A stretch of 64,000 bases of DNA. It comes from Rhizoclosmatium globosum. Its lineage: Eukaryota > Chytridiomycota > Chytridiomycetes > Chytridiales > Chytriomycetaceae. The notes below the pieces were generated by a model. The model saw only the letters and a program-made list of their open reading frames with translations, did not search any database and was not told where the DNA came from. The stretch covers positions 310,001 to 374,000 of the forward strand of contig MCGO01000009.1 in NCBI GenBank assembly GCA_002104985.1, written 5' to 3'. Made by a program: the position numbers and the translations under genes. Shown here piece after piece: positions 3,394-32,793 of this stretch (within the stretch, counting starts at the first letter, position 1; the number at the start of each line of letters is the position of its first letter).

Positions 3394-3399
3394 TTTATT
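3394..3399 (-). terminator. Poly(A) signal of the repeat-peptide gene
   Basis: AATAAA read on the minus strand (TTTATT on plus), starting 33 nt after the stop codon at 3432, at the expected spacing for 3' end formation. Confidence 0.5.
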
Positions 3400-3431: not shown

Positions 3432-4220
3432 TTAACGTCTAATCCAAGAGTTGCAATAGTTTGGCGAGTATCCCTTCCAACAGAATGGAGAACGCTTCAC
3501 TGGCACGACAGCCTTAACTGGAGCTTCTGGTACTGAAACGCTGCTAATTTCGTGAGCAACCTCGGCTGGAGTCTCGACTGGAACAGCAGTATCAGAAATT
3601 GTAGAAACTGGAACATCGCGCTTGCGGATCCAAGAGTTACAGTAGTTTGGAGAATATCCCTTCCAGCAGAATGGAGAGCGTCTAACCAAGGCAGTGACAA
3701 TTCCTTCTTTGACTGGGACTGGAGCTTCGACTGGGGCATCACCAATCGTGGCAACTGGAACGTCGCGCTTGCGAATCCAAGAGTTGCAGTAGTTTGGCGA
3801 GTAACCCTTCCAGCAGAATGGAGACCGCTTGATCAAAGCAGCAGCAAATCCTTTCGTCTTTGGAAGGGTACGAGACACAGGAACTTCATCGACAGTTTCA
3901 ACATCACGCTTTCTAATCCAAGAGTTACAGTAGTTTGGGGAATATCCCTTCCAGCAGAATGGAGAGCGTCTAACCAAGGCAGCAACAATTCCTTCCTTGA
4001 CTGGAACCGAACCTTCAATTGGTGCATCACCAATAGTGGCAACTGGAACATCACGCTTTTTGATCCAAGAGTTACAGTAGTTTGGAGAGTATCCCTTCCA
4101 GCAGAACGGGTCGCGCTTTGCAACAGCAACATCGCCTTGGACAGAAACTGGGGCGGCATTGACTGTCACCGAGGCCAAAAGAGAGAGAACAAGGATGGAA
4201 AGAGTAGTAAAGACTTTCAT
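3432..4220 (-). CDS. Secreted repeat-peptide precursor (Kex2-processed, pheromone-like)
   Basis: 262 residues, no intron. The start ATG at 4220 is followed by a clear signal peptide (MKVFTTLSILVLSLLASVTVNA, cleavage near residue 22). Then come five cores, residues 37-53, 86-102, 133-149, 182-198 and 244-260, each SPFCWKGYSPNYCNSWI (the first begins with D instead of S). Every core is preceded by KR or RR and followed by KKR, RKR or terminal RR, so Kex2 cleavage and Kex1-type trimming would release five copies of one 17-mer with two Cys that could form a disulfide. Spacers carry runs of x-P/x-A dipeptides (DVPVATIGDAPVEAPVPV), possible Ste13-type dipeptidase substrates. This is the layout of alpha-factor-type pheromone precursors and of fungal Kex2-processed repeat proteins (KEPs); the core itself I do not recognise. 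A secreted peptide hormone, pheromone, effector or ribosomal-peptide natural product are all possible. No UstY/DUF3328-like modifying gene is visible nearby. Confidence 0.9.
   Translation of the reverse strand: MKVFTTLSILVLSLLASVTVNAAPVSVQGDVAVAKRDPFCWKGYSPNYCNSWIKKRDVPVATIGDAPIEGSVPVKEGIVAALVRRSPFCWKGYSPNYCNSWIRKRDVETVDEVPVSRTLPKTKGFAAALIKRSPFCWKGYSPNYCNSWIRKRDVPVATIGDAPVEAPVPVKEGIVTALVRRSPFCWKGYSPNYCNSWIRKRDVPVSTISDTAVPVETPAEVAHEISSVSVPEAPVKAVVPVKRSPFCWKGYSPNYCNSWIRR
3441..4112 (-). repeat. Five-copy 51-nt coding repeat (peptide cores)
   Basis: Core units lie at 4062-4112, 3915-3965, 3774-3824, 3627-3677 and 3441-3491. They differ from one another at several wobble positions yet encode the same peptide apart from one Asp/Ser change at core position 1. 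Spacers vary in length and sequence (32, 30, 32 and 45 residues from one core to the next). The pattern shows selection on the peptide rather than recent duplication alone. Confidence 0.9.
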
Positions 4221-4276
4221 GTTTTGATTTGAGATTGTTGTGCGTTGATGTTAGTGATGTGACAACTTGAGTCTGG

Positions 4277-4283
4277 TTTTATA
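4277..4283 (-). promoter_or_regulatory. TATA box of the repeat-peptide gene
   Basis: TATAAAA on the minus strand, 57 nt upstream of the ATG at 4220. A CCAATCA element on the minus strand lies near 4447-4453. The 4221-4524 interval between this gene and the ABC transporter's 3' end holds no convincing coding sequence. Confidence 0.5.
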
Positions 4284-4524: not shown

Positions 4525-7500
4525 TTACGCATTTGCCAGTGCTTTAAGGGCTGCAGCATTCTGCGCCCCAGTTTCATTCACCATAGCGGCGAAAATGCTT
4601 CCTTCCCGATTCAAAAGAGCTTTTGGTGTATCAAACTCAACAACGTTTCCGTTATCCAACACCAGAATCCTGTCTGAATCGATAACAGTGTTCAAACGAT
4701 GAGCAATCGTGAAAATAGTTGCTTCTTTCATGGTTGTGCGAAGAGTCTGTTGGATTTGGTGATCCGTTGCCAAGTCAACGTTTGCTGTACTGGAAACGAA
4801 GATGTTTTAGTTTGTTTTCGAAGGGAACACCAGGTTACCATTCGTCCAAGACAACAAGGGCAGACTTTCTCAAAATCGCACGAGCAAGGCACATCAGCTG
4901 ACGCTGTCCGACAGACATGTTGTCTCCACCAGCATTTACAGCAGCATCTAATCCTCCATCCATAGCAGCCACTGCCTCCTTCAATCCACTCGCGTCTAAA
5001 GCGGACCAAATAGCTTGATCGTCATGTTCATGGAACGGATCCAAATTCAACCGAACCGTTCCAGAAAACAGCAGTGGATCTTGTGGAATGATTGAAAGCC
5101 TTGATCGAAGGTCTTTGAGACCAATCGCCGATGTCGTGATACCATCAATCTCGATTTCACCTGATGGCTCGACAATGCGGAAGAGGGAGAGCATGAGAGA
5201 CGACTTTCCGGATCCTGTTCGTCCAACTACACCAATCTAGCATTTTTCGTCAGTTCTTTCCCGACATGAGGAGGATGATTACCTTTTCGTGCTTCTTAGT
5301 CACCAAAGCCACGTCCTTCAATACAAGTGGAAGACCGGGTTGATAACGCATAGAAACATTCTTGAATTCGACAATGCCTTCACTTGGCCAATGCGCCGGA
5401 GGACGGTGGTCTTCAATAACGCCAGCAGCTTCAGTCTCGACTTTGGTTGCATAATGATGCATACGTTCAATACTGACAAGCTGAACTTCAGCTTCTGTGT
5501 ATTGACGGATGCAAAGTTGAAGAAGCTGTGTTGTTTGAAGTACGTAGGACAGGGCCAATCCCATTAATGCGGGTGAGATGGAAGACTGTAAAAATAAACA
5601 CGATATTAAGAAGAGTGTCAGACGGACTTGTCGAATTCAAACTTACACGAGAACTAACACCAAAGATGGAAGTAGCTAGTACGAGGGCATTTCCAATATA
5701 CTCTAAACGCATTCCCAACCACCGAGCACCAAGCTGTTGAAGATAATACGGGGCATTTGTCTGATCAATCAAAAAGTCGGTCTTGCTGATGAATCGAGTC
5801 TGTTCGCGGTAAGCACGAATCGTATTGACACCCGTCATACTCTCATTAATGTGCGAGTAAAGCGGCGACCGCGTCGTTGCATCCAATCTCTTGAGTTCAC
5901 GCGCCGTCGCACGATACATTCCCTGGATAAAGTAGTATGCGGCCATCAACGGAACGAGAGCAATAAGGAACCATCCGCTGGTAGAATACGACACCAAACA
6001 GAAGGTGGATATCGCCATTCCAAACGAAATGAAGAACATTCTGACTGCATCTGGAAGCGTATTGTCAATAATGTCCTGGTCGCGCGAGAAACGGTTCAAC
6101 ACGCGACCCAGCGGGTTCGTGTCGAAGAAGGAACTTGGAGTATGAATGATGCGACGAAGTGCATCCTGGTGGAGTGTTTTGGCAGCGACAGTTCCTCCAA
6201 TGGCGACCAGAACGGAGAAGAGAATGACGAGGGCGCCTTGTGTGATTCCCAGGCCGAAATATATCCAGCGGTATTGGAGGGCGGTGAGGTTCGCGATACT
6301 GTACTGAGACCAGTATACTAGCCAGAGATCCGTGGCAATACGACAAGCCTGGGCGAGAACGAGGAGGAATATCAAAAGAATTACGACTGGCCAACCTCCC
6401 ATCGCAACGGCGAAAGACACAACAACGGAGGTCTTGACGGCGCCGGTTTCGCGATCTTCAGCCGCAACAAGTTCTTTTCCGACAGAGGTATTCGTTGTTG
6501 GGGCGATTGCTGAAGCCTCCTTTTTGACGACTTTTTCAGCCACTTCTTCTTCTGGTTCTGCATTTTCCGTGACTCCTCCATAGCTATACATCAGTTTCGA
6601 GAACTCTCCTCCAGATTCCATCAATTCTGCATAAGTTCCAAACTCAGCGATAGACCCATTCTTCATCGTAACCACAAAGTCGCATTGAGGAACAAAGTGG
6701 AGCTAACTCACAAACGTCAATTATCGACCTCCAAATAAACAGACACAATCATACCTGATGAGTAACAAGCAACCGCGTTTTACCACCCAAAGCCCCACGA
6801 ATACACTCCGTGAAAATATACTGCCCAACATGCGCATCCACAGCCGACAACACATCATCCAACAACACAATCTCACTATCAAAATAAACCAGCCTCGCAA
6901 GTGAAACCCTCTGCTTCTGTCCCCCAGACAAATTAATCCCACGTTCCCCAATCTCAGCCAAATCACCGCCACTCAACACTTCCAGGTCCCTGCGCAATGC
7001 ACAGACTTCAATCGCGTGGTCATACCGCGCTTGGTCGAAGGGAAGACCGAAGAGGATGTTATCTCTCAGTGTTGCGTTCATGATCCATGCCTGCTGCGGG
7101 ACGTATCCGATGGATCCGTTGAACGTGACTTTCGCGGAGGAGTGTGCGGGTTTGAGTTGGCCGCAGATTGCGCTGAGGAGGGTTGACTTTCCGCTGCCGA
7201 CTTCGCCGATGATGGCGACGAGGGAGCCTGGAGGGATGGAGAGGTTGATGTTGTTAAGGTGGAGGCGGTCTTGTGGGGATTCAGTGGTGGTGGTTGTTGT
7301 TGTGAGGTCTTTGAGTAAAACTGCTTCTGAGGTTTCTGGAGACGATGGCTTGCTTTCGAGGGATTGGGTTGACGCTGTTTCAGGCGTGTCAGCGAGCTCC
7401 CAACGGAAATCGCCGTTCTCGACTTTAACAGCGGAGGGACAGTTCTTATCCAGGATTGGTTCGAACGAATTCTCTTCACTCAACAAGAGAGCCTGAATTC

Positions 7501-8837
7501 TTGAAATCGCAACACTCGCGTCAGCCCATGAACTCAACATCTGAGGAACCCACATCAACGGATTCCTGAGCTGATTAAACAGCGCCAAAACCGTGAAAAT
7601 AACAGTCGGATCAAACACATCACTTGTTGCAGAATACACAATCATCGTGGCCACACTTGCAAGAACGGGGATAACAAACGCGGATGCAGTCACAATCGAC
7701 CGGATCATATTTCCCGAAATAACAGCCTTCAGTTCTTCTGCACGGATCGCAAAGATTCGTTCGAGGAAGGAGTCTTCCCATGCAAAGAACTTGATGACGC
7801 GGATGGAACTAAGGGTTTCGGATGTAAGACGGATACGCTCGTCCGTGGTCTTTGCGTTTGATTTTCGTAGGTTCACGAGGACTTTGATTACCCAGATTTG
7901 GAAGGGAACCATGCAAACGAGGAGTGCGAGACCGGCTAGTGCTGGAGTCCCAATAACATGAATTAAGAGCGTAACGACGATGATAATTTGGGTTGGGAAT
8001 GTCCATTGGAGGTGGAAGAAGACGATGAAGAGTTCCATTCTTGTGAGATCTATCAAATCGAGTTAGAGCAACATAAAGTATGGATTATTATTTTTTTGTA
8101 CCAGTGGAAATAATGTTGGTAATATGGCCTGGATTGAATCGCTGTCGAGCAGCCCCACTGAGTCTCAAAGACTTTCTGTAAATTGCTGCAGTGAGAGTAG
8201 CCCGCATTGACATTCCGTATGCTGAAGCACGCGAAAAGAAGAATTGGATGCAAGTTGACGCTGTCATGTTTAACAAGAACAGGGAAAAGGCGTAAATGAG
8301 CCCCAAATGTAACGGCGGAGGATCAATTCCAGACGATGATTTAATATACGCAAGAATAACTTGCATAAGTAGTGGAGCTGTGCTGTTGATGAGATCGGCC
8401 GTGAACTTAAGCTGAGTAATGGTATTAATAGTGGCGTCAACCGACAACAATTTTCCGAACCAATCCAATCGGAAAGAACCCTTTTCCAAACATATCGACT
8501 AGGATGGATACAGTAGAAGGTTCCTTAGGTGGTTTCTTCTTGGGGTCTGTGTTGGAGGCATACTCCTTTGTTTCTTGTTGGTAGCGTTCAAGCCGGACTT
8601 TCCACTGCTCCTCAAACGAGTCAGCTAGCTCTGCGGCATGGTATCTCTGAGCAAGAGGAAATAGGTCTGATAATCCGAGGGTATTGCGGTACCCGTAGCG
8701 GAAGAGAGGGTCCATCCCTGACAAACACAAGTTAAGGATGTTGACAACCTGCTTTTTATACTCACATGCCAGTGTCACGAAGGACAGAGGGTTTGCTTGG
8801 TTTCCGGCGATACGGTCGGTGCTTTATAAGAGGCCAT
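4525..8837 (-). CDS. ABCC/MRP-type full ABC transporter
   Basis: ATP-driven exporter of the ABCC (multidrug-resistance-associated) subfamily, about 1,320 residues, arranged TMD1-NBD1-TMD2-NBD2 without an obvious TMD0. Eight exons; introns 8718-8765, 8412-8448 (only 37 nt), 8050-8101, 6703-6754, 5586-5646, 5237-5282 and 4790-4838. Splicing restores family motifs such as NPLSFVTLAW-MDPLFRYGYR and VLDE-CTANVDLATD. NBD1 has Walker A GEVGSGKST, signature LSGGQKQR and an atypical Walker B LLDD; NBD2 has GRTGSGKSS, signature MSVGQRQ and LVVLDE, as usual in ABCC. The 5' end is unresolved: the ATG at 8837 (MASYKAPTV) is one base out of frame with the conserved NPLSF exon, so a missing base, another intron or a different start is possible. 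Likely vacuolar or plasma membrane. Its proximity to the peptide gene does not prove a link. Confidence 0.88.
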
Positions 8838-16344: not shown

Positions 16345-17259
16345 TTATAATTTTGAAAGGAGAGTTCTGTTTGACACTTGAATTTCTGGAGCGGCCAATT
16401 TCTCAGTTGTGTCCAGAAACTTTCGAATGTTGGCTGCAGTTGTAGTTCCATGGAGGAATGCAGGTTTTATAAGGGCAACTTTCATCATCACAAGAATTAT
16501 CCCATTCAATACCAGAAGGGTCCCGAATAATCCGTTGCTGATTGCGTAGGCCAAGAGAGCATTTTGTGATGGGGATTCATCATCAACGAGCAGTACGTTG
16601 CATACAAAGGTCAGAACGAGAAGAAGCGCGCAAATTGATGCACCAAGTCCATAATTAGCTATCGTTCGATAAGAGACAGGAACTGAAATTGTGTTGTCAA
16701 CCATATTGAAGATTTGTCTTAAGAACGAAAAGCAATAGAAAACGTCCAATATAATCGTGGCAAGTCCTGACGAAGCTCCCGTTAGTAAGTATGCAAGCGA
16801 GGTTTGCTCCCGCGTCATTGAAATCAGCAACACGATAAATGGACCCAAACTCAATGCAGGGAGAATCTGTAACACATACTTCAAAGTACGATACGTTCTG
16901 GTTGACGTTTGCATTTTGAACACCTCTTTGCCACGTAGCCATGAATAATGGGCATAGAATGTTTGGTTACACGCCATAAAAAACGTCTCGGCTTTGTTCC
17001 AACTCGTGTCTCGTCCATTTATATGATAGTTTGCATCAGAGACTAGGTATCCCTGAACGCAAATCAACAGGAGGATAATCAGAGTGTTTGAAGGAGAGAA
17101 CATTGTTGCAAGATTGTAACTTTGACTTCGTGCAGGAATTTCCTTCATGAGTGTGAATACGATTGTAAAAACAAGTAAGCAAGCTGCAACTCCTGCGAGC
17201 GAGAATTCAAAGTACGCTAAACCGTGGCGGTACTCGTATATGAAAGTGGAGTTGCCCAT
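16345..17259 (-). CDS. Orphan multi-pass membrane protein
   Basis: 304 residues, single exon, ATG 17259. Six or seven predicted membrane helices (about residues 15-38, 57-72, 130-149, 153-180, 203-226, 238-265). The N-terminus is short with a glycosylation sequon (NST) and the C-terminal 30 residues are hydrophilic. I recognise no family motif: no DRY or NPxxY of class A GPCRs. It could be a lineage-specific receptor-like or transport protein. It shares a 92-bp divergent promoter with ARP1. Confidence 0.7.
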   Translation of the reverse strand: MGNSTFIYEYRHGLAYFEFSLAGVAACLLVFTIVFTLMKEIPARSQSYNLATMFSPSNTLIILLLICVQGYLVSDANYHINGRDTSWNKAETFFMACNQTFYAHYSWLRGKEVFKMQTSTRTYRTLKYVLQILPALSLGPFIVLLISMTREQTSLAYLLTGASSGLATIILDVFYCFSFLRQIFNMVDNTISVPVSYRTIANYGLGASICALLLVLTFVCNVLLVDDESPSQNALLAYAISNGLFGTLLVLNGIILVMMKVALIKPAFLHGTTTAANIRKFLDTTEKLAAPEIQVSNRTLLSKL

Positions 17260-20308: not shown

Positions 20309-20379
20309 ATATTACGAGATTGGTTTGTGGATAGATAAATACGTTTTTTATTACTTTTGCCTTCTACCTGACAATTTCA

Positions 20380-21625
20380 ATGTTTGCAGAACTACCTAGC
20401 ATCACGAAACGCAGTTTCTACACCCGTAGAAGATGCGTCATTATGTTCATTATAATTTGCTGCATGGCGGTCTTCTGTGTTCTAAAGCTCCAATGCACAA
20501 ATCGTTTGGATAAGTTCATCATTGAATTTGACAGTGATTCACTTCGACCGGACTGCCGCCACTTTCTGCACCACACTAAACACCCCACAGTTCGTTTTTT
20601 GGGACCCAAAGAGATCATAACTGATCGAAAAGAACTCATGAAACTCCAAAAGGCAATACCACAGCAAATTAACTTTATGCACTTCAACAACCACTTTCGA
20701 AATCCTCGATATCTTTGTGGAATTGAATCAGCCGCGAAACAAAATCCAAATCATAAAATCATTGTCCATGCAAAAAATGAGACTGACTTTGAAACACAAA
20801 CGCAAAAATGGATTCAGCTACTTGGGGACAAGATCAAAGATCGTCTGTCTTTTGAGCGGCTGGATTGGGCTCCTATGTTCGAAGATACTCCGTTACAACA
20901 GTGGTGGGCAGATGACTTGTACAAAGAAAGTAAATGGGTTGATCAGAACCTTGGGAATGCATATCGTCTTGCGCTTTTATGGAAACGTGGAGGGATATAC
21001 CTTGACAGTGATATTATTTCTATAAATCCGCTAAGTGGAATGGGTCGTTCAGTCGCAATGCAGCGAGGACCCAGAATAATGAATAACGCCTATTTCAGTT
21101 TCCCAGAGCAAGATCTCTTCGTCTGGGATATGATGGAAGAGTTTGTGTTGGGCTTTAACGGAAGCAAATGGGGCAATAATGGTCCACGTATGGTCGAAAG
21201 GTGAGAATCCATTTTTTTCGTTAACTGACACAACTGAGAACAGGACGTACAATAAATACTGTGCGAACTCCAATCCCGAAGAAAATGTAGATGAATGCAA
21301 CGGCTTGGGAATCGCGGATCCTCCGCGCTTTTTCCCTGTGCCGTACTCAAAGAGGAACCAAATCGCATTACCTTGGACAAGTCATTGCAAGCTAATGAAG
21401 TTTCTGGCTGACGAATCCATCGGGGTTCATTGGTTCAACAAATACTATAAAACACTGGGAATACCAAAGAATTCAGTCTTGGGTACTCTTATGCAGCTTC
21501 ATTGTCCGTCAGTTGTAGAAGCTTTTACTCCAACTGGACTTGGATTTGTTGAAGACGTTGGTGAGAACACTTTTCCGGAGGAGGCTAAGGAATGGATGGG
21601 TTGGGAAAAAGACGATGGATTCTAG
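20380..21625 (+). CDS. Glycosyltransferase paralogue 1 (A4GALT/GT32-like)
   Basis: Type II Golgi membrane glycosyltransferase with Gly_transf_sug and alpha-1,4-glycosyltransferase (Gb3 synthase-like) regions; transfer of a sugar to a glycan or glycolipid is inferred. Exons 20380-21200 and 21244-21625 (intron 43 nt). A membrane anchor follows a basic tail (CVIMFIIICCMAVFCVLKL). Motifs: QINFMHFNNHFRNPRYLCGI, QNLGNAYRLALLWKRGGIYLDSD with the DxD metal/nucleotide-sugar site (DSD), MNNAYFSFPEQD, FNGSKWGNNGPRMVER and ADESIGVHWFNKYY. About 400 residues, frame intact. First of seven same-strand paralogues. Confidence 0.88.
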
Positions 21626-21714
21626 TCGCGTTTTCGGCTATTCACTGTTTGGATAATAAAGGGGTTTGATTTTATGTTCAAGCTTTTTTCTGTGTCAAAC
21701 ACCCTTGCTCAAAC

Positions 21715-23198
21715 ATGAAAGTCCACTTGAAATATCGCCGCCTTATCGTCGCTGCCTTGGCTACTGTCGTATTTCTCTGCCATACATGGAACTGGCTTTC
21801 TCCTCAGCTCTTGTCTTCATCTGACTCAAAGCAAACGGAATCAGGAAACAAGGGGATAGTTCCTCTTGCTGAAGACAAAGTTGCCATTCCAAATGACCCA
21901 TTACTTCCGCCACCGGAAGATGCAGAGCCAGCAACGCCCAAAGACGGCTGTCAAAAGTTCTTTGCCCGTGCAACATCTCCAAACACAATCCTTCTGGGCC
22001 CCACACTCGAATCAGAGCCACAAGAATACGAGAATATCCCCCAAAACATATTTTTCTTGCACTATAACGAGAGGCTTATGAATCCCCGTTATCTGTGCTC
22101 CCTTGAGTCCGCAGCCCGCCAAAACCCAGACCACAAAATCTACTTGTTCGCCAGAAATGCAAAGGACTTTCGGAGAGATGTCAGCAAATGGCTTTCGCGT
22201 GTTGGAGGCGCCATGAATGATATGCTTGAAATTAGAGAACTGGATTGGGCTGACCAAATGATGGGTACACCTTTGGAGCCATGGTGGACAGAAGGCCGGT
22301 GGAAAGATAGCTCCTGGGTAGACCAGAATCTTGGAAACGCGTTTAGAATGGGTCTGATTTATAAAATGGGCGGAGTGTATATGGATCTTGACATAATCAG
22401 TTTGAACCCTGTTCGAGGTCTTGGAAGAGCTATCTCAATGCAGGATAAAGATTGGTTTAACAATGCCGTGTTTAGCCTGGAGAAGGAAGATAAATTCGCG
22501 TGGAAAATGGTTTGTGTCCCTTTACCGACGTTATCGTGCTAAAGCTATGTTCTTGAAGATGGAAGAATTCGTTGACGGGTTTAAGGGACATATTTGGGCA
22601 AGGAATGGTCCACGAATGGTCACGAGGTAAAGACGATGTGCTTTGTGGATTCGGAATATGTTTTAAATTGTTGCCAGAACGTACAAAAAGTATTGTGAGC
22701 AGGACGAAATTGATGAGTCTATGGCAGAAGTCTGTAAAACTTTGGCCGTTATGCCAACGGAACGATTTTTCCCAATCCAGTACGAACAGCGGGAGAAACT
22801 CTTTGAAGCTTTTGACGAAAGCTGTGACTTGATGGAGCAAATATCACGCGAGTAAGTTTATTCAGCTTTAAAACTGCTTTAACTCGTTTTTATTTTGTAG
22901 GTCCGTTGGAATTCATTGGGTGACTAATGTGTTTCTTCCTTAAATAATCAAATTAACTCTTGAATAGTGGAACAAACGCGTACAAACGTCCACGATTTCC
23001 ACGAAAACAATGCTCACGGTACTTATGAAGTCTCACTGTCCTGCTGTGTTCGAATCATTTCCGGAATCTCAACTTGGTGTGGATGAGAAAGCTAAGGTCG
23101 GGGCTCCTGCAGAAGTTAAGGGAGGCGATGCTTCGATGGCCTTTGATAAAAAGAAGAATGGGGTTCTTGATGGACAGAAGCCAAGAAATTTCGCTTGA
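21715..23198 (+). CDS. Glycosyltransferase paralogue 2, five exons
   Basis: Same family as paralogue 1. Start ATG 21715; exons 21715-22509, 22559-22626, 22678-22851, 22901-22919 and 22968-23198. The fourth exon is 19 nt and encodes only SVGIHW plus a split Glu codon; skipping it would break the frame. A signal anchor lies at residues 10-27 (LIVAALATVVFLCHTW). Catalytic core: QNLGNAFRMGLIYKMGGVYMDLDII (DLD). Then FNNAVFSLEKED, MEEFVDGFKGHIW and ARNGPRMVTRTYKKYC. The C-terminus is longer and Lys-rich. All five exons join in frame. Confidence 0.85.
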
Positions 23199-23238
23199 AT
23201 AAATCTTTTGTTTGGATTTCCAGTTTGAACAGATTCTG

Positions 23239-24693
23239 ATGCTCTTCTCCCGAAAACTCCTACATACTCGATGGAAGCTGTCTCCATCCCTCTTTACGAG
23301 TATCAGCAGTCTTTTGCTAGCTTCTATGTATATTGCTCTGTTTTGGTTCAGTATGGATGATGTAGAGCCAGTGAAAACGGAGGAAGTGAATCTTCCCATC
23401 AAGGCCTCATCAATCCAACCAGTCGCGCTTCCTTCTGAAAAAGCTTCAAAACCCGAGTCAAACTTATTCGGAAATCTATCGCTGAAGGTATTCAAATAAT
23501 CACTCCACTAAGCAGTTGTAAACACCACTTTGACAGATCACAACCAGCGATCCATCTTGCCAACGCTTTCTCGATCGCGCCGCCTCACCTGGATCGTACT
23601 TTCTGACTCCAAACGACAGAAACTCAACAAATACATCATTAATATCTCCTCAAATTCCAAAGCAAATATTCTTTCTCCACTACAACAACGAGCTCCAACA
23701 ACCACGCCGGCTTTGCTCAATAGAGTCTGCCGCACGACAGAACCCGGATCATCGAATCATTATTTACGCAAAGAGGAAAAACACATTTGAAACCAAAATC
23801 AAAAAATGGCGAAAAAACGCCGGGTTAGACCGTCGACTGGTTGTAAAGGAGTTGAAGTGGGGTGATGCTATGGTGGACACGCCATTATTTGAATGGTGGA
23901 AAGAAAGGAAGTGGGCTCGATCAAAGTGGCCTGAGCAGAATTTGGGTAACGCTTTTCGACTTGGCATGCTGTGGAAGTAAGGACCATCCTGTCTTTAACA
24001 GGAAACTGATTTTCAAATCTTTCAGGTTCGGAGGGGTTTATTCGGATCTGGATATTATCAGCGTCAATCCCGTCAAGGAGTTGGGGCGAACAGTGGCCAG
24101 ACAGGACAAGAAAAATACCAATAATGCTTTCTTCAGCGTCGAGCCTCGTGATCCATTTATTTGGGAGATTATGAAACAGTTCGTGAGAGGGTTTCGAGGC
24201 GATAAATGGTATCGTCAAGACTCAAAACTAGAGACTGACTAAAACAGATTATGATTTTTAGGGGGCACAACGGACCTGCGGCTGTTACAAGGTGATTATC
24301 AATTCATTTTGTGTGGTGTCTAAAACGTTTTCATGTAGAACTCTCCGCAAGTGCAAGATTCCAGAATGTCAGAGCATTGAACTCGCAGATCCGATGCGGT
24401 TTTTTCCATTCAACTATACTAGTGCCATAGATCAAACATATTGGGACGATTCGTGTGAGATGATGGGCCGAATCGCTGATGAGTGAGTTGAGTTTCTACA
24501 TCATTATGCAGCTAAAATCGATTACAAAAGGTCGATAGGAGTGCACTATTGGGATAAACGTCTCAAAAATATACAGGATCTTCGAAAGACCTCTATTCTA
24601 AGAATAATAATGATATCGCACTGTCCAGTACTCGTCAACACATTTTCCCATAAAGAGCTGGGGATGCGAACCGATGACTCTATGAAGAAATAA
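23239..24693 (+). CDS. Glycosyltransferase paralogue 3, six exons
   Basis: Start ATG 23239 (MLFSRKLLHTRW); introns 23488-23536, 23977-24025, 24209-24261, 24292-24338 and 24483-24530, the most introns of the array. Joined protein reads PKQIFFLHYNNELQQPRRLC, QNLGNAFRLGMLWKFGGVYSDLD (DLD retained, but Ser replaces the usual Met/Leu before it), NTNNAFFSVEPRD and GDKWGHNGPAAVTR. The usual Cys-rich loop after TR is shorter (LRKCKIPECQS). All exons join in frame; about 400 residues with an N-terminal anchor. Confidence 0.82.
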
Positions 24694-24746
24694 ATGGTTG
24701 GGGATCTGCTAATTTTACAAGCTTGCGCTTATCAATAATTCTCACA

Positions 24747-25922
24747 ATGTTTCTCATTCGACTTCCCCCAGCATATCCAGCACAAACACGCAAATTACCT
24801 CGAAGAAGACTAATCTTCCAAGCATCTGTATTCCTGATTGTCACTATTCTCCTCTTCCTCCAGCTAAGAGGCAGACTGACCCCCTTGTCAAAGCGACCAA
24901 CGAAACACGAAACCTTCCTTCGTAACATTCTTCAATCAACGTCAATACCTGAAACATGCAAGAAATTTATTGACCATAGTGTACTCACACTCTCCTCATT
25001 GCCAAACAAACCTTCATCAAAAGTACCCAAAATCGCACACTTTATCCACTACAACCAACACCTCCAAAACCCAAAATACCTCTGCGCAATATCATCTTTC
25101 GCTGCAAAGAATCCAAAGCACGAAATCCGCGTCCACGTAACAAACCGGTCAAACTTCATCGCCGAAACCCCGTCCAACTTGTTTACCCCCAACACACGTA
25201 TTCTCGAAACTTCATACACAGAAGTATTCGAAGGAACACCGTTGGAAGCGTGGCAGACGGATGCAGGAACGAAAGGGAAATGGATCGCGCAAAACCTTGG
25301 AAACGCGCTTCGTCTCGCATTGTTGTATCGATATGGAGGTGTTTATATGGATCTGGATATTATTAGTATCAATCCGGTGCCCCCAGGACGGTTTGTTGCT
25401 TTCCAAGACGGGAACTCACTGAACAATGCGTTTCTGGCGTTTGAAAAAGAGGATCCTATCGTGTGGTGGATGATGGAGGAGTTTGTTTCAGGGTTTCGAG
25501 GTGATATATGGGGCCGGAATGGACCTGAAGTAGTTACGAGGACGTGGAAAAAGTATTGTGCAGGTAAGGAGAAGAACGACGAGTGTGACGGGGTTCAAAT
25601 TCTTCCGAAGGAAGCTGTGTATCCATTTGGATATAAACGAAAACATCTAATGTTTGAATCTTGGGATGGCTTTTGCGAGGATATGGAGGCGATGAGTCGG
25701 CAATCTGTGGGGTTACATTGGTGGAATCGCAGGGCAAAGGAGGTTGAGGTGATGTCAAATCGAAGCGTATTGGCCATAGTCATGCAAGCACATTGTCCAG
25801 CGTTGTTTGAGGAGCTTTCTGAGGGCGATTTGGGAATTGATGCGAATGCTGTTTTGGGTGCAGCAAAACTCACAGCTGAAGATCCAGAACTAATGAGGCC
25901 AAAACAAAAGAATCGAGTTTGA
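24747..25922 (+). CDS. Glycosyltransferase paralogue 4, intronless
   Basis: 391 residues in one uninterrupted exon, start ATG 24747 (MFLIRLPPAYPAQTRK). The anchor is LIFQASVFLIVTILLFLQL. Motifs: VPKIAHFIHYNQHLQNPKYL, QNLGNALRLALLYRYGGVYM then DLD, LNNAFLAFEKED, GRNGPEVVTRTWKKYC and SVGLHWWNRR. Introns present at the corresponding positions in paralogues 2 and 3 are all absent, which suggests retroposition or cDNA-mediated intron loss. Confidence 0.9.
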   Translation: MFLIRLPPAYPAQTRKLPRRRLIFQASVFLIVTILLFLQLRGRLTPLSKRPTKHETFLRNILQSTSIPETCKKFIDHSVLTLSSLPNKPSSKVPKIAHFIHYNQHLQNPKYLCAISSFAAKNPKHEIRVHVTNRSNFIAETPSNLFTPNTRILETSYTEVFEGTPLEAWQTDAGTKGKWIAQNLGNALRLALLYRYGGVYMDLDIISINPVPPGRFVAFQDGNSLNNAFLAFEKEDPIVWWMMEEFVSGFRGDIWGRNGPEVVTRTWKKYCAGKEKNDECDGVQILPKEAVYPFGYKRKHLMFESWDGFCEDMEAMSRQSVGLHWWNRRAKEVEVMSNRSVLAIVMQAHCPALFEELSEGDLGIDANAVLGAAKLTAEDPELMRPKQKNRV

Positions 25923-26029
25923 AAATAAAATTGTTGTTGTCGCCAAAGCACTTGTAATTGTTTTGAGCGGAACCTGTCAAAGTTCCGCACCCCAAACCAA
26001 TCCTCAACTTTAGCTTCTATACTCCGCTT

Positions 26030-27285
26030 ATGCAGGCTCTATCTGATTCTATTTGTCTCAGGAAATGGGTTCCGACCAAGTTCCACAGTAAGAGGCTGCC
26101 GCGCCACAGAATCATTGTTGTCATCATTCTGGTTGCACTCGCCACAGGCCTATATTTCATAAGCATTGCACTACAGCCACCTTCTATAAATTCGGACTCT
26201 GGACTTGAATCGCACCACGTAATCGCACAGCCTTCTCCAACTTTACCTATGCCATCGAAACGGACTTATCAGGACAAATGCACCCACTTTCTGAACCACA
26301 CTTCTTCCCTCACAAGCAATCACTATCTCAACGCAAAGCACAAAGTCCAAATCCCTGAACCTCTGTTCAACCCGTCCATACCAAAAACAATACACTTTCT
26401 TCACTACAACAAAAACCTGGAGAACCCAAAATATCTGTGTGCAATTGAATCAGCTGCAGCAAAAAATCCTTTACATAACGTCATCATTCACGTCATGAAC
26501 ACAACATCATTTTCACTCTCACTTCAGCTTTGGCGCAGCAACCTTCCAACCAACCTCTCAGACCGTATCAACGTCATTGAAATTAACTGGGGAACCACTT
26601 TCCGAGGCACACCGTTCGAAAGTTGGTTCAACAGGCAGGAATACGTGAAGTCCAAATGGATAGAACAGAACCTTGGAAACGCTTTCCGTCTCGCGCATCT
26701 CTGGAAACACGGAGGCGTATATCTAGACCTGGATATTGTTAGCATCAATCCAGTCTCAGGAATGGGTCGGAGCGTTGGTATGCAAGATTCTAAAAGGCTG
26801 AACAATGCTTACCTGAGCTTCCCGAGCGGTGATGCATTTTTAGAAGAAGCGATGCACGAGTTTGTGTCGGGGTGGAGAGGTTATCGGTGGGGACATCAAG
26901 GGCCTGAGCTTGTTACTCGGGTATTCAACAAGACCTGTAATGGAATCAACTGGACGATCGACAGCGAGATATTTGCGATGGGTTGAATATCGCACCTACT
27001 GTGAGGTTCTTTCCAGTAAAGTATGGAGAGCGGGCGTGGCTCTTTGATCCTTGGTACCAGCAGTGTGATTTGTTGGCCAAGTTTGCTGATGAGAGTATTG
27101 GATTGCATTGGTGGAATAAGCGCACTGCAGGAGCCAAAGTCTCGAATGAGACGGCAGTTGCGATTGTGATGAAGCGTGTATGTCCTGCCGTCTTTTCCGT
27201 GTTCTCGGAAGATGAATTGGGAATTGGAGCTGGCGGCGTGATTGGGGCACTTGAGTATCTGAAACAGGAAAAGACAAAGTTCTGA
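26030..27285 (+). CDS. Glycosyltransferase paralogue 5, intronless, one frame break
   Basis: Start ATG 26030 (MQALSDSICLRKW). Anchor at RIIVVIILVALATGLYFIS. Motifs: PKTIHFLHYNKNLENPKYLC, QNLGNAFRLAHLWKHGGVYL then DLD, LNNAYLSFPSGDAF, WGHQGPELVTRVFNKTC. One base is missing between 26940 and 26972: the frame carrying NWTIDSE must shift to continue as ICDGLNIAPTVRFFPVKYGE and run to the TGA at 27285. As written translation ends at 26986. No introns. Either a consensus error or a young pseudogene. Confidence 0.8.
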
Positions 27286-27363
27286 TTCAGCAATACATCT
27301 TTCTCCATTTTTCTTGGCGTTGTGCTTGTGAACAAAAATTCCATTAACATTGTTCCACTGCAC

Positions 27364-28628
27364 ATGAAGAAGATCACCATTGCTGCTCCGTCTCAATCGA
27401 TGATGCTTCCAACACCAAGAAAGATCAAAGCGCTTCACCTTCTTTTGGCAGCGGCAACTTTGATGTCGCTCTTCTCAATTGTGTCGTTGCTGTCACTGCC
27501 GCCACAAGTTGATACTTCACTGGCAGCCGCCGCCACTTCAATCAGAGCAAAGTTTGATCTTGTTCTGAAGTGCGATCACTACATCGACAGGGCCTCCCAC
27601 CCGTCAACCTTCCTCCTAAACGCAACCTCAACATCAAACATCAAGCGACCCTCATCACAAACCGCCTCTATACCCAAAAACATCTTCTTTGTTCATTACA
27701 ACGACCACCTGCAGAACCCAAAGTATCTCTGTGCGATCGAATCTGCCGCACGCCAAAACCCTTCACACATGATCACCATCCACGCTGCAAACCACTGGAC
27801 CTTTGTAAAAGCAATCGGAAAGTGGAAAGCGGCGCTTCCGAGTCATATGCAGAACCGAATCCGTGTCGTATCTCTAAATTGGGAACAAGCGATGACAAAT
27901 ACTCCACTTGAGCTGTGGTTCAAAGAAGAACGTTACAAGGAATCAAAATGGATTGAACAGAACCTCGGGAACGCATACCGTCTTGCTGTGCTCTACAAAT
28001 CGGGTGGCGTGTACTTCGATCTTGATATTCTCTCGGTCAACCCAGTTGGTGGAATGGGACGGTCAATCGTCATGCAAGATTCTACGCGGATGAATAATGC
28101 ATTTTTTAGTATGCAGAAGCGAGACCCGTTTGTGTGGAAGCTGATGGAAGAGTTTGTCGGTACATTCCAAGGATATACATGGGGTGAGTTTCGGTCTTTG
28201 TGTTATTTTACCTATTTACGATGCTCAACTTTATATCTGAAGGTTATAACGGTCCAGACATGGTCACACGGACTTACACCAAAACCTGTGGTGCATCAGA
28301 ACCTCATAATTCTTGCGAGGGTTTACACGTTGCGCCTCTCGCCAGAATGTTTCCCATTCAATACGAACAACGAGGAGACTTATATGATCTCTTCAACGCA
28401 CAGTGCGACAATGCTGTGAAATTTGCAGATGAAGCCATCGGAGTCCACTACTGGAACAAACGTACACAACATACTGGAATCGGAGATAAGACCTTGCTAG
28501 GTGTTATGATGCAATTGGCTTGTCCCGTTGTTTTTGAGACTTTTGGAGGGAATCAACTTGGAGTCAATGAAAATGGAATTGTTGGTAGTGCTGAGTATTA
28601 CCGTGTCGAGAAACAAGATTGGCTATAG
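27364..28628 (+). CDS. Glycosyltransferase paralogue 6, two exons
   Basis: Start ATG 27364 (MKKITIAAPSQS). One intron, 28184-28242, splits the codon in TWG-YNGPDMVTR. Anchor at ALHLLLAAATLMSLFSIVSL. Motifs: PKNIFFVHYNDHLQNPKYLC, QNLGNAYRLAVLYKSGGVYF then DLD, MNNAFFSMQKRDPFVW, DEAIGVHYWNKR. Ends ...YYRVEKQDWL, 36 bp before the end of the convergent F-box gene. Most similar to paralogue 7 by eye, including intron position. Confidence 0.9.
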
Positions 28629-28664
28629 AATAAATCGAATCGGTAAATGTATAGGGTATCTATT

Positions 28665-30070
28665 CTAGTTTGCCTGCAAAATATCAACAACACCCAGAGC
28701 GCAACATTGTTCACTTGTCTCTGCATCCGTCAACTTGAAATTCTTTCTGCGGCGATACTTTTCTATATGCTCTTCGTTACAACTCCAACGATCGCACTTT
28801 GTGCAGACTTGCTTTGTGTCTACTTCACAGGTCGGGCACATGATGGACGTGCAAAACAAGCACTTGATCCATCCAGAAACAGGCATACAGTCCCAACAAA
28901 CGTACTTTCCACAATTCTTGAAACAAAACTTTTTGCGAGACGAATGTTCTCTTCCGGTCCAAAGCTCACAGACCTCACATGGACGATTCGTCGTTGCGCA
29001 TTCTCTGCAAAGAATGACATCGCAATCGTCCTGTTGACACGCACATTCTTGAACAATAAGGCCGCATCCTTCGTGCAAGAACACAAAGAATCGGCAACTG
29101 GTTTTCGCATTTGCTACAGTTTCTTTCATGAACAAATCCCCGTTGCTCTTGTACGTCGTGAGGAACGCGCCATTACATCCACATGCAACAGGTTTCACGA
29201 CAACTCTGTGGATTCTCGACAGATGCCAACATGAGTTCACGAAGCTCTTGAATCTCGTAAAAGAAGTGGTCCGCGTCCTTGACATCGAGGTCCACAAAAA
29301 CCAGGTTCTTGAGCATCAGTGGTGGACCTTCCTTGACAAGGTTGAGTAACGTGCGCATATCGAGTGAGAGGAAATACAAAAACACAGCCTCCAAATTATG
29401 GCATTTCGCCAAAAGAGCCGCAACTGTTTCAGGAAGCTGGACTTGGCCGTCCACGTCTGGCGACAAGTCCGTGATTCTATTGAAACAGCCTAGTACCAGA
29501 ACCGGGGCAACAGTCCGCAACATTGGGAACGACCACGTCTCAATTGGATTTCTCCATAAAATCGGAGTATTAATCAATATAGCACGAGTTGTACGATCCA
29601 GGGCCAAAAGGGTGAGGTTCATACGGAATGCTCTTTTTACGGCATTCTTGAGTGGCCTCGGTTTATTACCGTCTTCATCGTCCTCATCGTCATCGTAGTC
29701 TTCATTCATCGTCGTCGTCTTCGCCGTTTGAATGGCACTCAAGAAAGACTTGGATGAGACTCTCTGTGGGCAAAGCAGCTGTCAAAGAGGGCAGTGGAAT
29801 GAGATCAGTGACAGATCCAGGCGGTATAATATTATAAGCTTCCTGATCAGAGACAGTGCGATCAAGTTCAGTTGGAGGTGCTTTGGGGGTGCGTGTGCAG
29901 GATTCGGTGGCAACCTGAGAAGATCAACTCAATAAGTGTCGTTAAAATCAAAAGAGTCCGCTCACTGAAACAAATGAAACCCGGGTCTCGGTGCGGATGG
30001 TCGTTACAACTTGTCCATTCACAATCGACTTGGTTGTCGTGACTGTTGTTGTGGTTCTCTTGACGGCCAT
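28665..30070 (-). CDS. F-box-like protein with C-terminal Cys-rich domain, one frame break
   Basis: Start ATG 30070 (MAVKRTTTTVTTT). Intron 29915-29965 is clear; a probable intron 29098-29182 joins RETCC to CRFFVFLHEGCG in frame. An F-box-like segment (PLPSLTAALPTESLIQVFLEC) precedes an Asp-rich tract, then KRAFRMNLTLLALDRTTRAI, ILWRNP and leucine-rich sequence (LEAVFLYFLSLDMRTLLNLV). The C-terminal 130 residues hold about 25 Cys in CxxC-like pairs (CRECATTNRPCEVC, CLFCTSIMCPTC, CTKCDRWSC), suggesting zinc binding. Around 29705-29712, inside a GAC/GAT tract, the frame changes (one base extra or two missing). An SCF-type substrate adaptor is possible; no known combination of these domains comes to mind. 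Confidence 0.6.
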
Positions 30071-31483
30071 CTTAAATCGTTTGTGGGTGAGTGTTTTTCA
30101 GGAACCACTCCTATTCTACCCATTTGTACCAGTTTATACCAGTTTATACCACTAATATCACCAGGAAGTGTACCATTTACCGACGGAAGACTTCCTTTTT
30201 ATTCTGAATGAGTGGATGGGATACAATTCACGTTGATCCATTCGTCCTCAATCTGTTTTGTTTTTCCTGCTTATATCAAGTAAATTGTTTGCTTAAGAAC
30301 GAAATCATATCAATGAGAAAACAGCGGTAGCAAATTGTGGTTGCTATAAAAGAAATCCCTATTTCCTCAGAAATTCCCCTGTGCTTTTCCAGGAGGGGTG
30401 ACAATCCTAATAAATGGTGCGTACAGTGGTCCGGTCTGCCTGGCAAAGTCGTTTTGGTACGTGCACCTGATTTTCTTATCCGCCTCTCAGGTGTGCCCGA
30501 AAACATCGCAAGTACGTGCAGGGTTTTCCGGCCTGCCTGCTTCGAAATAACGTTTGCTTGCACCATATATCCGTTCTGCCTGCCAAGACAAAAGGATTGG
30601 GTGTACCCCAAAATATGATACAAGTTAATTGGAGTGCACGTTGTTTGATGATTGGTTTTCTTCCAACTACTCACTTCAAAGGCACTGCACCATAACTATG
30701 GATACCTGGCTGCCTGTGAAAAATGAGTCGAAGGGCGCACGGTTGTCAAAGTTTTATTGGGTTTGTCACTCCTCCTGCTTTTCCCCCGTCAAAACGCCAA
30801 AACAGGGGGTGGCGAACTGAATCAAAAGCCTCCTTTTTCATGTCACTCGTAATCTCTTTTTCCGGCTCAATTCCCGTACCGGTCCAGCTCAACTTGAAAA
30901 GAGTAAGAAGAAAGAAGGAAAAAGAGAGGGGATTTGGAATATGGATAATAAACCTCAAACGAATTCGTTTTCGGAAATGAAATTTATCCCTTTTGCATCG
31001 CTTAGTAATAGACCAATAGTCAAGGTTCAAAGCAGAACATAGATTCATAAAGGGAGTAAAGGTAAGGCGAAGCAAAGAACATAAGGCAAGAATCATTTTA
31101 TTACTCAACGCAATGATTGCGCCTTAAAATGGTGCAGAATTTGCAGCAGAATTTGCCCATAAATTCGGCCATGGCTGATTGTGATTTGCCCCTCATCGCC
31201 TCACTTAAAACCTCAACTTAGACGTCTTGAGACAATGTCTTCAATTCTTCGTCATGCACAACAATTTAATAACAGTTCGAATGTTTTGAACCTGAAAGTC
31301 TTGGCGACCTCACAACTCCTAGCCAAGATACAATAAAATCAATTAAAGTTTATCACATATTTCGAGATTGTGAACTATTCTAATAATATATAACCTCCAG
31401 TGTCTTGAAGAATTGGAGGCACACAAGCAACTGGAAGTTCACAAGCCCAATTGAAATTCGGAGGATCCAAAAACTTCTCACCA
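30071..31483. other. 1.4-kb stretch without a recognisable gene
   Basis: No supported coding sequence. The longest frames (about 130 codons minus, 94 plus, near 30280-30670) overlap each other, lack good starts and match nothing known. Visible structure: a 10-nt unit AGTTTATACC twice in tandem at 30131-30150, and CTGCCTG at 30436, 30533, 30576 and 30710. It separates glycosyltransferase paralogue 7 from the other six and includes the promoters of the F-box gene and paralogue 7. Confidence 0.5.
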
Positions 31484-32793
31484 ATGAAAGGGACGGACAG
31501 CAAGTCAATGAGTACCTTCAGTCCACCACCAATGGGACTTTCAAGGCGGCGGTTAAAGGTGTTCCAGCTTCTGCTCGCAGTGGCAGTGATTGGAGCACTG
31601 GTCCCACTCTGTTCCGTGTTACTATCTTCGGAGGCAACTTCGCCTGGAGACCCAACCGAGGCAGTTGCGTCTGCGTTCCGAGAAAGGCTGCTGCTTTCAT
31701 CATTGTCAGAGTGGAACCGCACAAACTGCACCCACTTTGTCGATCGTGCCTCAAATCACCTTACAACATACCTCCTTGATGAAACCTCATCTGTCCCTCT
31801 TACGCATCCTTCCCCGCAAGCCGAAGCAATCCCAAAATCAATCTTCTTTCTGCATTTCAACGAACGGTTAAAGAACCCAAAATATCTATGCTCATTGGAG
31901 TCGGCAGCACGCAAGAACCCAAATCACACCATCACAGTACATGCCGCAAATCACAAGACCTTCATCAAATCAATAAGGAAGTGGTCGTCAGCGCTTCCGG
32001 AAGATGTGAAGAGTCGGATTGTAGTCAGTCCTCTTAATTGGGAGGAAACATTTCAAGACACACCGCTTGAATCCTGGTTCCAACAAGGCCTATACAAAGA
32101 GTCTACATGGGTCGAACAAAACCTCGGAAATGGATTCCGACTAGCTCAACTCTACAAATCGGGCGGTGTGTACATGGATTTGGACATTCTGTCAATCAAC
32201 CCTGTTGGTGGCATGGCACGCACCCTCGCAAAGCAAGATTGGGGCATGTTCAACAACGCATTTTTCAGCATGAATAAGACGGATGCATTCGTGTGGCAGT
32301 TGATGGAAGAGTTTGCAGAGTCCTTTAACGGATATAAATGGGGTGAGGTTCTATCAGACCATGAAGTGCTGGGTTTTTTAACAATCGCTCTCAATTCTAG
32401 GATTCAATGGACCAGAAATGGTTATGCGTGCATATAATAGTAACTGCCACCCACCAGGAGCCAATATGTCATTGTATCATTCTTCATGCGATGACCTCAA
32501 CGTTGCCCTGAGCACCTCTTTTTCCCTATTCAATACCAAGATAGAGGCCTCCTTTATGATCCTCTTGAAGCTCAATGCGACGGGCCACAAAACTGGTGGA
32601 TGAAAGTGTTGGAATCCATTATTGGAACAAAGCCACTCAAGGAGTAGGAATTCATGAAGATAGTGTCTTGGGATCTGTGATGCAGCTAGTGTGTCCGACT
32701 TTGTTTCAGACGTTTGGAGGTAAAGCTCTTGGCGTGGATTCAAAAGGGATTTTGGGCCAGGATGTTTATTATAACAGCGAAGTATTCGAATAG
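31484..32793 (+). CDS. Glycosyltransferase paralogue 7, two frame breaks
   Basis: Start ATG 31484 (MKGTDSKSMSTFSPPP); intron 32343-32400 at the same place as in paralogue 6. Anchor at VFQLLLAVAVIGALVPLCSVL. Motifs: PKSIFFLHFNERLKNPKYLC, QNLGNGFRLAQLYKSGGVYM then DLD, FNNAFFSMNKTD, FNGPEMVMRAYNSNC. Two single bases are missing, both in homopolymers: CCC at 32506-32508 (frame of LNVA continues as PEHLFFPIQYQDRG) and GGG at 32582-32584 (continues as ATKLVDESVGIHYWNK). The remainder runs to TAG 32793. It is physically separated from the array by the F-box gene. Confidence 0.8.

What the first reader, a model, noticed from the sequence alone, without database searches (positions are those of the whole stretch)
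3432..4220. Five-copy secreted peptide precursor with a 17-residue two-Cys core
Seen: signal peptide, five cores SPFCWKGYSPNYCNSWI each bounded by KR/RR and KKR/RKR/RR, TATA box and poly(A) signal. Known: this is the architecture of alpha-factor-type pheromone precursors and Kex2-processed repeat proteins in fungi. Inferred: a processed, disulfide-bonded signalling peptide. Chytrid mating signals described so far that I know of (sirenin and parisin of the related Allomyces) are terpenoids, so a peptide hormone here would be new.
Basis: partly seen in the sequence, partly recalled or inferred. Interest (0 to 1): 0.88.

Follow-up and report, generated by a model that had tools for sequence, protein, structure and literature searches.

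The report
Five-copy chytrid peptide-signal precursor
A gene in what is likely a chytrid fungus encodes five copies of one two-cysteine peptide set between protease cutting sites, with every DNA difference in the last 16 residues of the peptide silent, so it is predicted to be secreted, cut out and likely used as an extracellular signal, in a fungal group whose mating signals are largely unknown.

Summary
The minus strand at 3432-4220 encodes 262 residues: a signal-peptide-like start and five cores, [S/D]PFCWKGYSPNYCNSWI, each after KR or RR and before KKR, RKR or terminal RR. A collinear second haplotype carries five more; no paralogue was found. Residues 2-17 carry at least nine nucleotide changes among the five copies, all synonymous, and only the coding frame is invariant. 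The one variable residue is the X of an X-P dipeptide after the kexin site, the published STE13 signature, so the mature form may be the 15-mer FCWKGYSPNYCNSWI. The genome has kexin, DPP-IV-type and S10 carboxypeptidase matches. [quoted passage not shown] It is not an ascomycete alpha-pheromone by sequence; no STE2 was found, without a positive control. Signalling is the best reading; mating is possible but untested. Orthologues in other chytrids could not be tested here.

The parts
3432..4220 (-). Precursor gene, 262 aa, intronless ORF
4155..4220 (-). Predicted signal peptide, residues 1-22 (MKVFTTLSILVLSLLASVTVNA)
   Evidence: Hydropathy; cleavage site inferred by eye, no SignalP
4062..4112 (-). 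Core 1, DPFCWKGYSPNYCNSWI, after KR, before KKR
3915..3965 (-). Core 2, SPFCWKGYSPNYCNSWI, after RR, before RKR
3774..3824 (-). Core 3, SPFCWKGYSPNYCNSWI, after KR, before RKR
3627..3677 (-). Core 4, SPFCWKGYSPNYCNSWI, after RR, before RKR
3441..3491 (-). Core 5, SPFCWKGYSPNYCNSWI, after KR, before RR and stop
4277..4283 (-). TATAAAA, 56 nt before the ATG; also present in the second haplotype
   Evidence: function inferred
3394..3399 (-). AATAAA poly(A)-type signal, 32 nt after the stop; also present in the second haplotype
   Evidence: function inferred

Best explanation
The gene at 3432-4220 (minus strand) encodes a 262-residue precursor with five copies of one two-cysteine peptide, each bounded by dibasic sites; it is predicted to be secreted and cut by a kexin, and likely releases a disulfide-closed peptide that would act as an extracellular signal to cells of the same species. 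Shown by sequence: the cores, the dibasic sites, the silent-only changes at residues 2-17, the second haplotype, and the kexin, DPP-IV-type and S10 peptidase matches in the genome. Inferred: ER entry, kexin cleavage after KR/RR and after KKR/RKR, removal of the C-terminal K/R residues by an S10 (Kex1-type) carboxypeptidase, removal of the N-terminal S-P or D-P by a dipeptidyl aminopeptidase (Ste13-type), and a C-x8-C disulfide, giving FCWKGYSPNYCNSWI (oxidised [M+H]+ 1865.777). The receptor would have to be something other than a recognisable Ste2; guiding mate finding or rhizoid fusion is one possible role.
For: Five cores invariant at residues 2-17 with at least 9 nucleotide changes, all silent (pS 0.50, pN 0); the chance of 9 of 9 silent is 3e-7 to 1e-5 for transition biases 1 to 8, treating changes as independent. 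Between haplotypes: cores 4 silent, 0 replacement; rest of the precursor 6 silent, 9 replacement, codons 54-69 left out. Only the coding frame is invariant. The sole variable residue is the X of X-P after the kexin site, the STE13 signature stated in PMC6339444 (passage). A kexin-like ORF matches yeast kexin 1ot5 at 1.6e-115. DPPIV_N has one match on each of two contigs, presumably the two haplotypes, with a hydrophobic stretch near the start of the neighbouring ORF (by eye). S10 carboxypeptidase: 38 exon-level matches. No folded domain is predicted for the precursor (mean pLDDT 44.6, single sequence), consistent with a linear polyprotein but not proof.
Against: No expression, peptide or receptor evidence. 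No orthologue found: none of the 7,997 candidates scored reached E of 10; none in viral contigs or prokaryote genomes, which are not fungal collections. The protein database lists another protein of this window but not this one, so it apparently lacks this gene and absence there says little. No STE2 match; STE3 matches only below cut-off. The survey PMC6339444 calls Rhizophagus irregularis the only early-diverging fungus with canonical-like STE13 signatures (section 18), and here there is a single X-P dipeptide per core, so the Ste13-type step is weakly supported. The second-haplotype copy is frameshifted as assembled; both haplotype contigs show many one-base frameshifting differences, so this may be assembly error, but a real null allele is not excluded. 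An invariant core would also suit an antimicrobial peptide.
Confidence: 0.6

Rival explanations
1. The precursor releases a secreted antimicrobial or otherwise antagonistic peptide, not a signal to its own species.
For: One KEP survey suggests that some KEP peptides serve as effectors or toxins (PMC7329392, discussion passage); the peptide is aromatic-rich and disulfide-capable; an ABC transporter gene lies just upstream (ABC_membrane and ABC_tran hits).
Against: Little charge (one Lys in the core); identical at residues 2-17 across all copies and both haplotypes, where arms-race peptides tend to diversify (general knowledge); no immunity or tailoring gene recognised among the ten window proteins scanned.
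Confidence: 0.22
2. The cores are scaffolds of a cyclised RiPP of the ustiloxin (dikaritin) kind.
For: Same precursor layout, and a Tyr/Trp-rich core; 22.3% of 7,878 KEP genes have a DUF3328 neighbour (PMC7329392, passage).
Against: No UstYa (PF11807) match in the whole genome (no positive control) and none among the ten window proteins scanned.
Confidence: 0.06
3. The peptides are structural, coating the wall or thallus, like Kex2-released repellent peptides of smuts (recalled).
For: Multi-copy release is also used for abundant wall peptides (recalled); the AAG share of Lys codons is 0.79, highest of 12 ORFs compared, a weak hint at strong expression, though overall preferred-codon share (0.56) and GC3 (0.43) are not exceptional in the same table.
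Against: Short, two-Cys core kept exact at 16 of 16 positions, more than a structural repeat usually needs (inference).
Confidence: 0.09
4. The repeat is not a peptide gene: a chance ORF, an antisense gene, or a decayed chromodomain repeat.
For: A 231-residue ORF is open on the opposite strand; the whole precursor gives a Pfam Chromo score of 24.4 bits, E 2.8e-05, cut-off 25.1, and the core scores above all but 1 of 20,000 shuffles against a recalled chromodomain consensus.
Against: Only the minus-strand coding frame is invariant; the Pfam Chromo match vanishes for a single repeat (0 families at E up to 10), so it comes from counting one short motif five times, and the shuffle test used a consensus chosen after seeing the hit.
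Confidence: 0.03

Closest known systems
Kex2-processed repeat proteins (KEPs), PMC6339444 and PMC7329392
   Same: Signal-peptide-like start and at least three repeats of at least 8 aa between KR/RR-type sites
   Different: No sequence relative found for this core; core invariant at 16 of 17 positions
Ascomycete alpha-pheromone precursors (e.g. F. graminearum WCTWKGQPCW)
   Same: Layout, two Cys, X-P dipeptide fitting the STE13 signature
   Different: Does not fit the published WCXXGXXCW consensus (C-x8-C here); similarity not above shuffles; no STE2 found
STE13-signature KEPs of non-ascomycetes (Rhizophagus irregularis, Trichosporon oleaginosus; PMC6339444)
   Same: Kexin sites followed by a dipeptidase-type signature outside Ascomycota
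   Different: Other cores; that paper calls R. irregularis the only early-diverging fungus with such features
Ustiloxin-type (dikaritin) RiPP precursors
   Same: Repeated cores between Kex2 sites
   Different: No UstYa gene found

Membership tests
Kex2-processed repeat protein (KEP) | ER signal peptide | tested here: inconclusive
   Hydrophobic start with small residues before a likely cleavage site (sequence); no SignalP
Kex2-processed repeat protein (KEP) | At least 3 repeats of at least 8 aa, none over 100 aa, between KR/KK/RK/RR (PMC7329392) | tested here: met
   Five 17-aa cores
Kex2-processed repeat protein (KEP) | A kexin in the genome to cut it | tested here: met
   513-residue ORF in L027 matches 1ot5 at 1.6e-115; that it acts on this precursor is untested
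Ascomycete alpha-pheromone | Core fits WCXXGXXCW (PMC3068285) | tested here: not met
   FCWKGYSPNYCNSWI has C-x8-C; best score reached by 6,362 of 20,000 shuffles, 7,611 with Cys fixed
Ascomycete alpha-pheromone | STE13 signature (XA or XP) after the KEX2 site | tested here: met
   DP or SP after KR/RR in 5 of 5 cores; one dipeptide only
Ascomycete alpha-pheromone | Ste2 receptor in the genome | tested here: inconclusive
   No PF02116 match at E up to 1, no positive control; papers report no reliable Ste2 in Chytridiomycota and Ste2 only in Ascomycota
Dikaritin (ustiloxin-type RiPP) | UstYa/DUF3328 gene nearby | tested here: inconclusive
   No PF11807 match genome-wide, no positive control
Chromodomain | Pfam Chromo score over cut-off, per domain | tested here: not met
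   24.4 against 25.1 bits for the whole precursor, no stretch passing on its own; nothing for one repeat

The most novel reading that the evidence does not exclude
This is the first peptide mating or partner-finding pheromone of a chytrid: an alpha-factor-like secretion and trimming route that yields the cyclic 15-mer FCWKGYSPNYCNSWI, read by a receptor unrelated to Ste2, so that peptide pheromones arose in fungi outside and apart from the Dikarya system.
Probability: 0.22. Interest if true: 0.88.

Novelty: new member of a known kind. Interest (0 to 1): 0.52.

Why it matters
[quoted passage not shown] A defined 15- or 17-residue peptide with a predicted mass, from a fungus that is probably a culturable model, makes that question directly testable: synthesise it and watch zoospores and rhizoids. 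Even if it is not a pheromone, the exactness of the core and the X-P signature give a clean candidate for a receptor ligand in a phylum where a survey found no reliable Ste2 or Ste3 (PMC3251606, passage).

Tried and rejected
Alpha-pheromone homology: the eye-catching FCWKGYSPNYCNSW / WCTWKGQPCW resemblance was tested and dropped, because shuffles do as well. Chromodomain origin: weak Pfam score dropped, because one repeat alone gives nothing. Homologues: the protein database gave none at E 0.001 or 10; viral and prokaryote contigs gave none (in one search five stretches matched a pattern and none was confirmed), as expected for a fungal gene. Three weak own-genome matches (E 0.309, 31% identity) were taken as chance. 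The PDB search of the precursor gave two hits at E 1 and 1.2, taken as chance. Linked receptor: an orphan membrane protein at 16348-17259 had no Pfam match at E up to 0.1, no relative but itself and a poor model (pLDDT 45.6), so no fold search was run. A weak STE3-like match on contig C279 (E 0.0523, 0.0072 for one ORF) is below the cut-off. Organism: the rhodopsin check against PDB did not name the species; I infer a chytrid, probably Rhizoclosmatium globosum JEL800, from paired rhodopsin genes and a recalled assembly size of about 57 Mb. The first haplotype codon comparison was out of register after residue 69; its allelic numbers are discarded and one search is used. Supplementary KEP tables of the two surveys were not readable here, so this protein may already be listed there.

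Full report
OBSERVATION. The minus strand at 3432-4220 holds an intronless 262-codon ORF. After a hydrophobic start it carries five 17-residue cores at 4062-4112, 3915-3965, 3774-3824, 3627-3677 and 3441-3491, preceded by KR, RR, KR, RR, KR and followed by KKR, RKR, RKR, RKR and RR-stop. Four cores start with S and the first with D; residues 2-17 are PFCWKGYSPNYCNSWI in all five. TATAAAA ends 56 nt before the ATG and AATAAA begins 32 nt after the stop.

GENOME CONTEXT. The window is part of a 773-kb contig of a 56.9-Mb, 420-contig assembly. A search with the 17-mer gave 10 matches, five here and five on contig C23; a search with the whole precursor added only three chance-level matches (E 0.309). 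C23 (120,000 of its 121,970 bases compared) follows the window collinearly in six long blocks at 95.6-97.9% identity, and matches 7.2 of the 10 kb tested to the left of the window at 95.5% (alignments of 400 bases or less not printed). So it is the other haplotype, not a paralogue. The C23 copy is frameshifted as assembled after core 1. Long window ORFs show 65 frameshifting differences in 22 ORFs, 14 of them in one 70%-identical ORF; the reverse comparison shows 52 in 19 ORFs, 14 in the same low-identity ORF. Picking long ORFs in one contig biases the other to look broken, and both contigs look error-prone, so assembly error is likely for C23 but a null allele is not excluded.

SELECTION. Among the five window cores, residues 2-17 show synonymous differences at 0.50 per synonymous site and none at nonsynonymous sites; the minimum is nine changes, all at third positions. 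Under random substitution the chance of nine silent changes out of nine is 3e-7 (no transition bias) to 1e-5 (bias 8), assuming independence. The repeats are therefore likely old and held exactly at the protein level. Reading the same DNA in the other five frames gives 7 of 15, 5 of 15, 8 of 16, 1 of 15 and 7 of 15 variable columns against 0 of 16; the frame with one variable column contains stops. Between haplotypes the cores have 4 silent and 0 replacement differences, the rest of the precursor 6 silent and 9 replacement (codons 54-69 left out because the C23 frame is shifted there), and a neighbouring ABC-transporter ORF 36 silent and 9 replacement. The core-versus-rest contrast between haplotypes is small in number (one-sided exact probability about 0.05, my arithmetic); the within-gene contrast is the strong one.

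PROCESSING. One published survey defines KEPs by an ER signal peptide and at least three repeats of at least 8 aa between Kex2 sites (PMC7329392, methods passage); another gives the STE13 signature as XA or XP after the KEX2 site (PMC6339444, passage). All five cores start with X-P, and X is the only residue that varies. The simplest reading is that X-P is removed and X is free to drift, leaving FCWKGYSPNYCNSWI; this is inference, and against it stands the survey's remark that Rhizophagus irregularis is the only early-diverging fungus with such signatures (section 18). The genome encodes a kexin-like ORF that matches yeast kexin 1ot5 at 1.6e-115 over residues 31-469 of 513, one DPPIV_N match on each of two contigs, with a hydrophobic stretch near the start of the neighbouring ORF (by eye), and 38 exon-level matches to S10 carboxypeptidases. 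There are 24 P_proprotein matches in all, so which protease acts is open. A single-sequence AlphaFold model of the precursor has mean pLDDT 44.6, in keeping with an unstructured polyprotein but not proof of it.

WHAT IT IS NOT. The core invites comparison with the Fusarium alpha-pheromone WCTWKGQPCW (sequence from PMC7329813, passage), but the best local alignment score against seven published alpha-type or alpha-like peptides, 25, is reached by 6,362 of 20,000 free shuffles and 7,611 of 20,000 with cysteines fixed, and it does not fit the published consensus WCXXGXXCW (PMC3068285, passage). PF02116 (STE2) gave no match, with no positive control available; STE3 gave only sub-threshold matches. 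Two papers report no reliable Ste2 in Chytridiomycota and Ste2 only in Ascomycota (PMC3251606; PMC12842992; passages). UstYa gave no match, also without a positive control. The Chromo score of the whole precursor (24.4 bits, cut-off 25.1) disappears for one repeat.

RELATIVES. No protein in the large database reached E of 10 among the 7,997 candidates scored. That database holds another protein of this window but not this one, so it apparently lacks this gene and the absence is weak evidence. The nucleotide collections open to me for this were viral and prokaryotic.

LITERATURE. KEPs are known in chytrids: 178 in 19 surveyed strains, 14 of them positive (PMC7329392, table passage). Their role in early-diverging fungi is stated as undetermined and pheromone chemistry as largely unknown (PMC6339444, section 18). 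Text searches for three pieces of the core found no paper. Searches combining chytrid terms with Ste2, Kex2, pheromone precursor, sexual pheromone or mating type listed between one and four papers each: the two KEP surveys, receptor surveys, and papers on other fungi or other subjects; I read passages of five of these and saw the rest as listings. None of what I saw describes a chytrid peptide pheromone. Supplementary tables could not be read, so this protein may be listed there without comment.

VERDICT. A real, conserved, multi-copy secreted-type peptide precursor: high confidence. An extracellular signal: more likely than not. A mating pheromone: possible, untested. By kind it is a new member of the KEPs; its interest lies in giving a concrete, synthesisable candidate ligand in a phylum whose pheromones are largely unknown.

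Noticed in passing
window 16348-17259 (-): Orphan 304-residue membrane protein with six or seven hydrophobic helices, about 12 kb from the precursor; no Pfam match and no relative but itself.
   Followed up: partly
window 4525-8062 (-): ABC transporter pieces (ABC_membrane, ABC_tran at 5491-8062; the last piece 4525-4731 by eye) directly upstream of the precursor on the same strand.
   Followed up: partly
window 20335-32434 (+): Row of similar glycosyltransferase-like ORFs; one was tested and matches Gly_transf_sug, the others look alike by eye.
   Followed up: partly
contigs C410 and C23: Two diverged haplotypes (about 96% identity) in this region; paired matches elsewhere, e.g. rhodopsins on C194 and C399, hint that the whole assembly holds two genomes.
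   Followed up: partly
contigs C43, C390, C420: 21 of 24 P_proprotein matches fall on these three contigs in clusters, suggesting expanded kexin-like protease genes; counts are by exon and may include both haplotypes.
   Followed up: no
L029 1327-3365 (contig C279): Two neighbouring multi-helix genes on opposite strands (by eye), one with a sub-threshold STE3 match (E 0.0072).
   Followed up: partly
window 3537-4232 (+): A 231-residue antisense ORF stays open across the repeats; the antisense frames are not conserved.
   Followed up: yes
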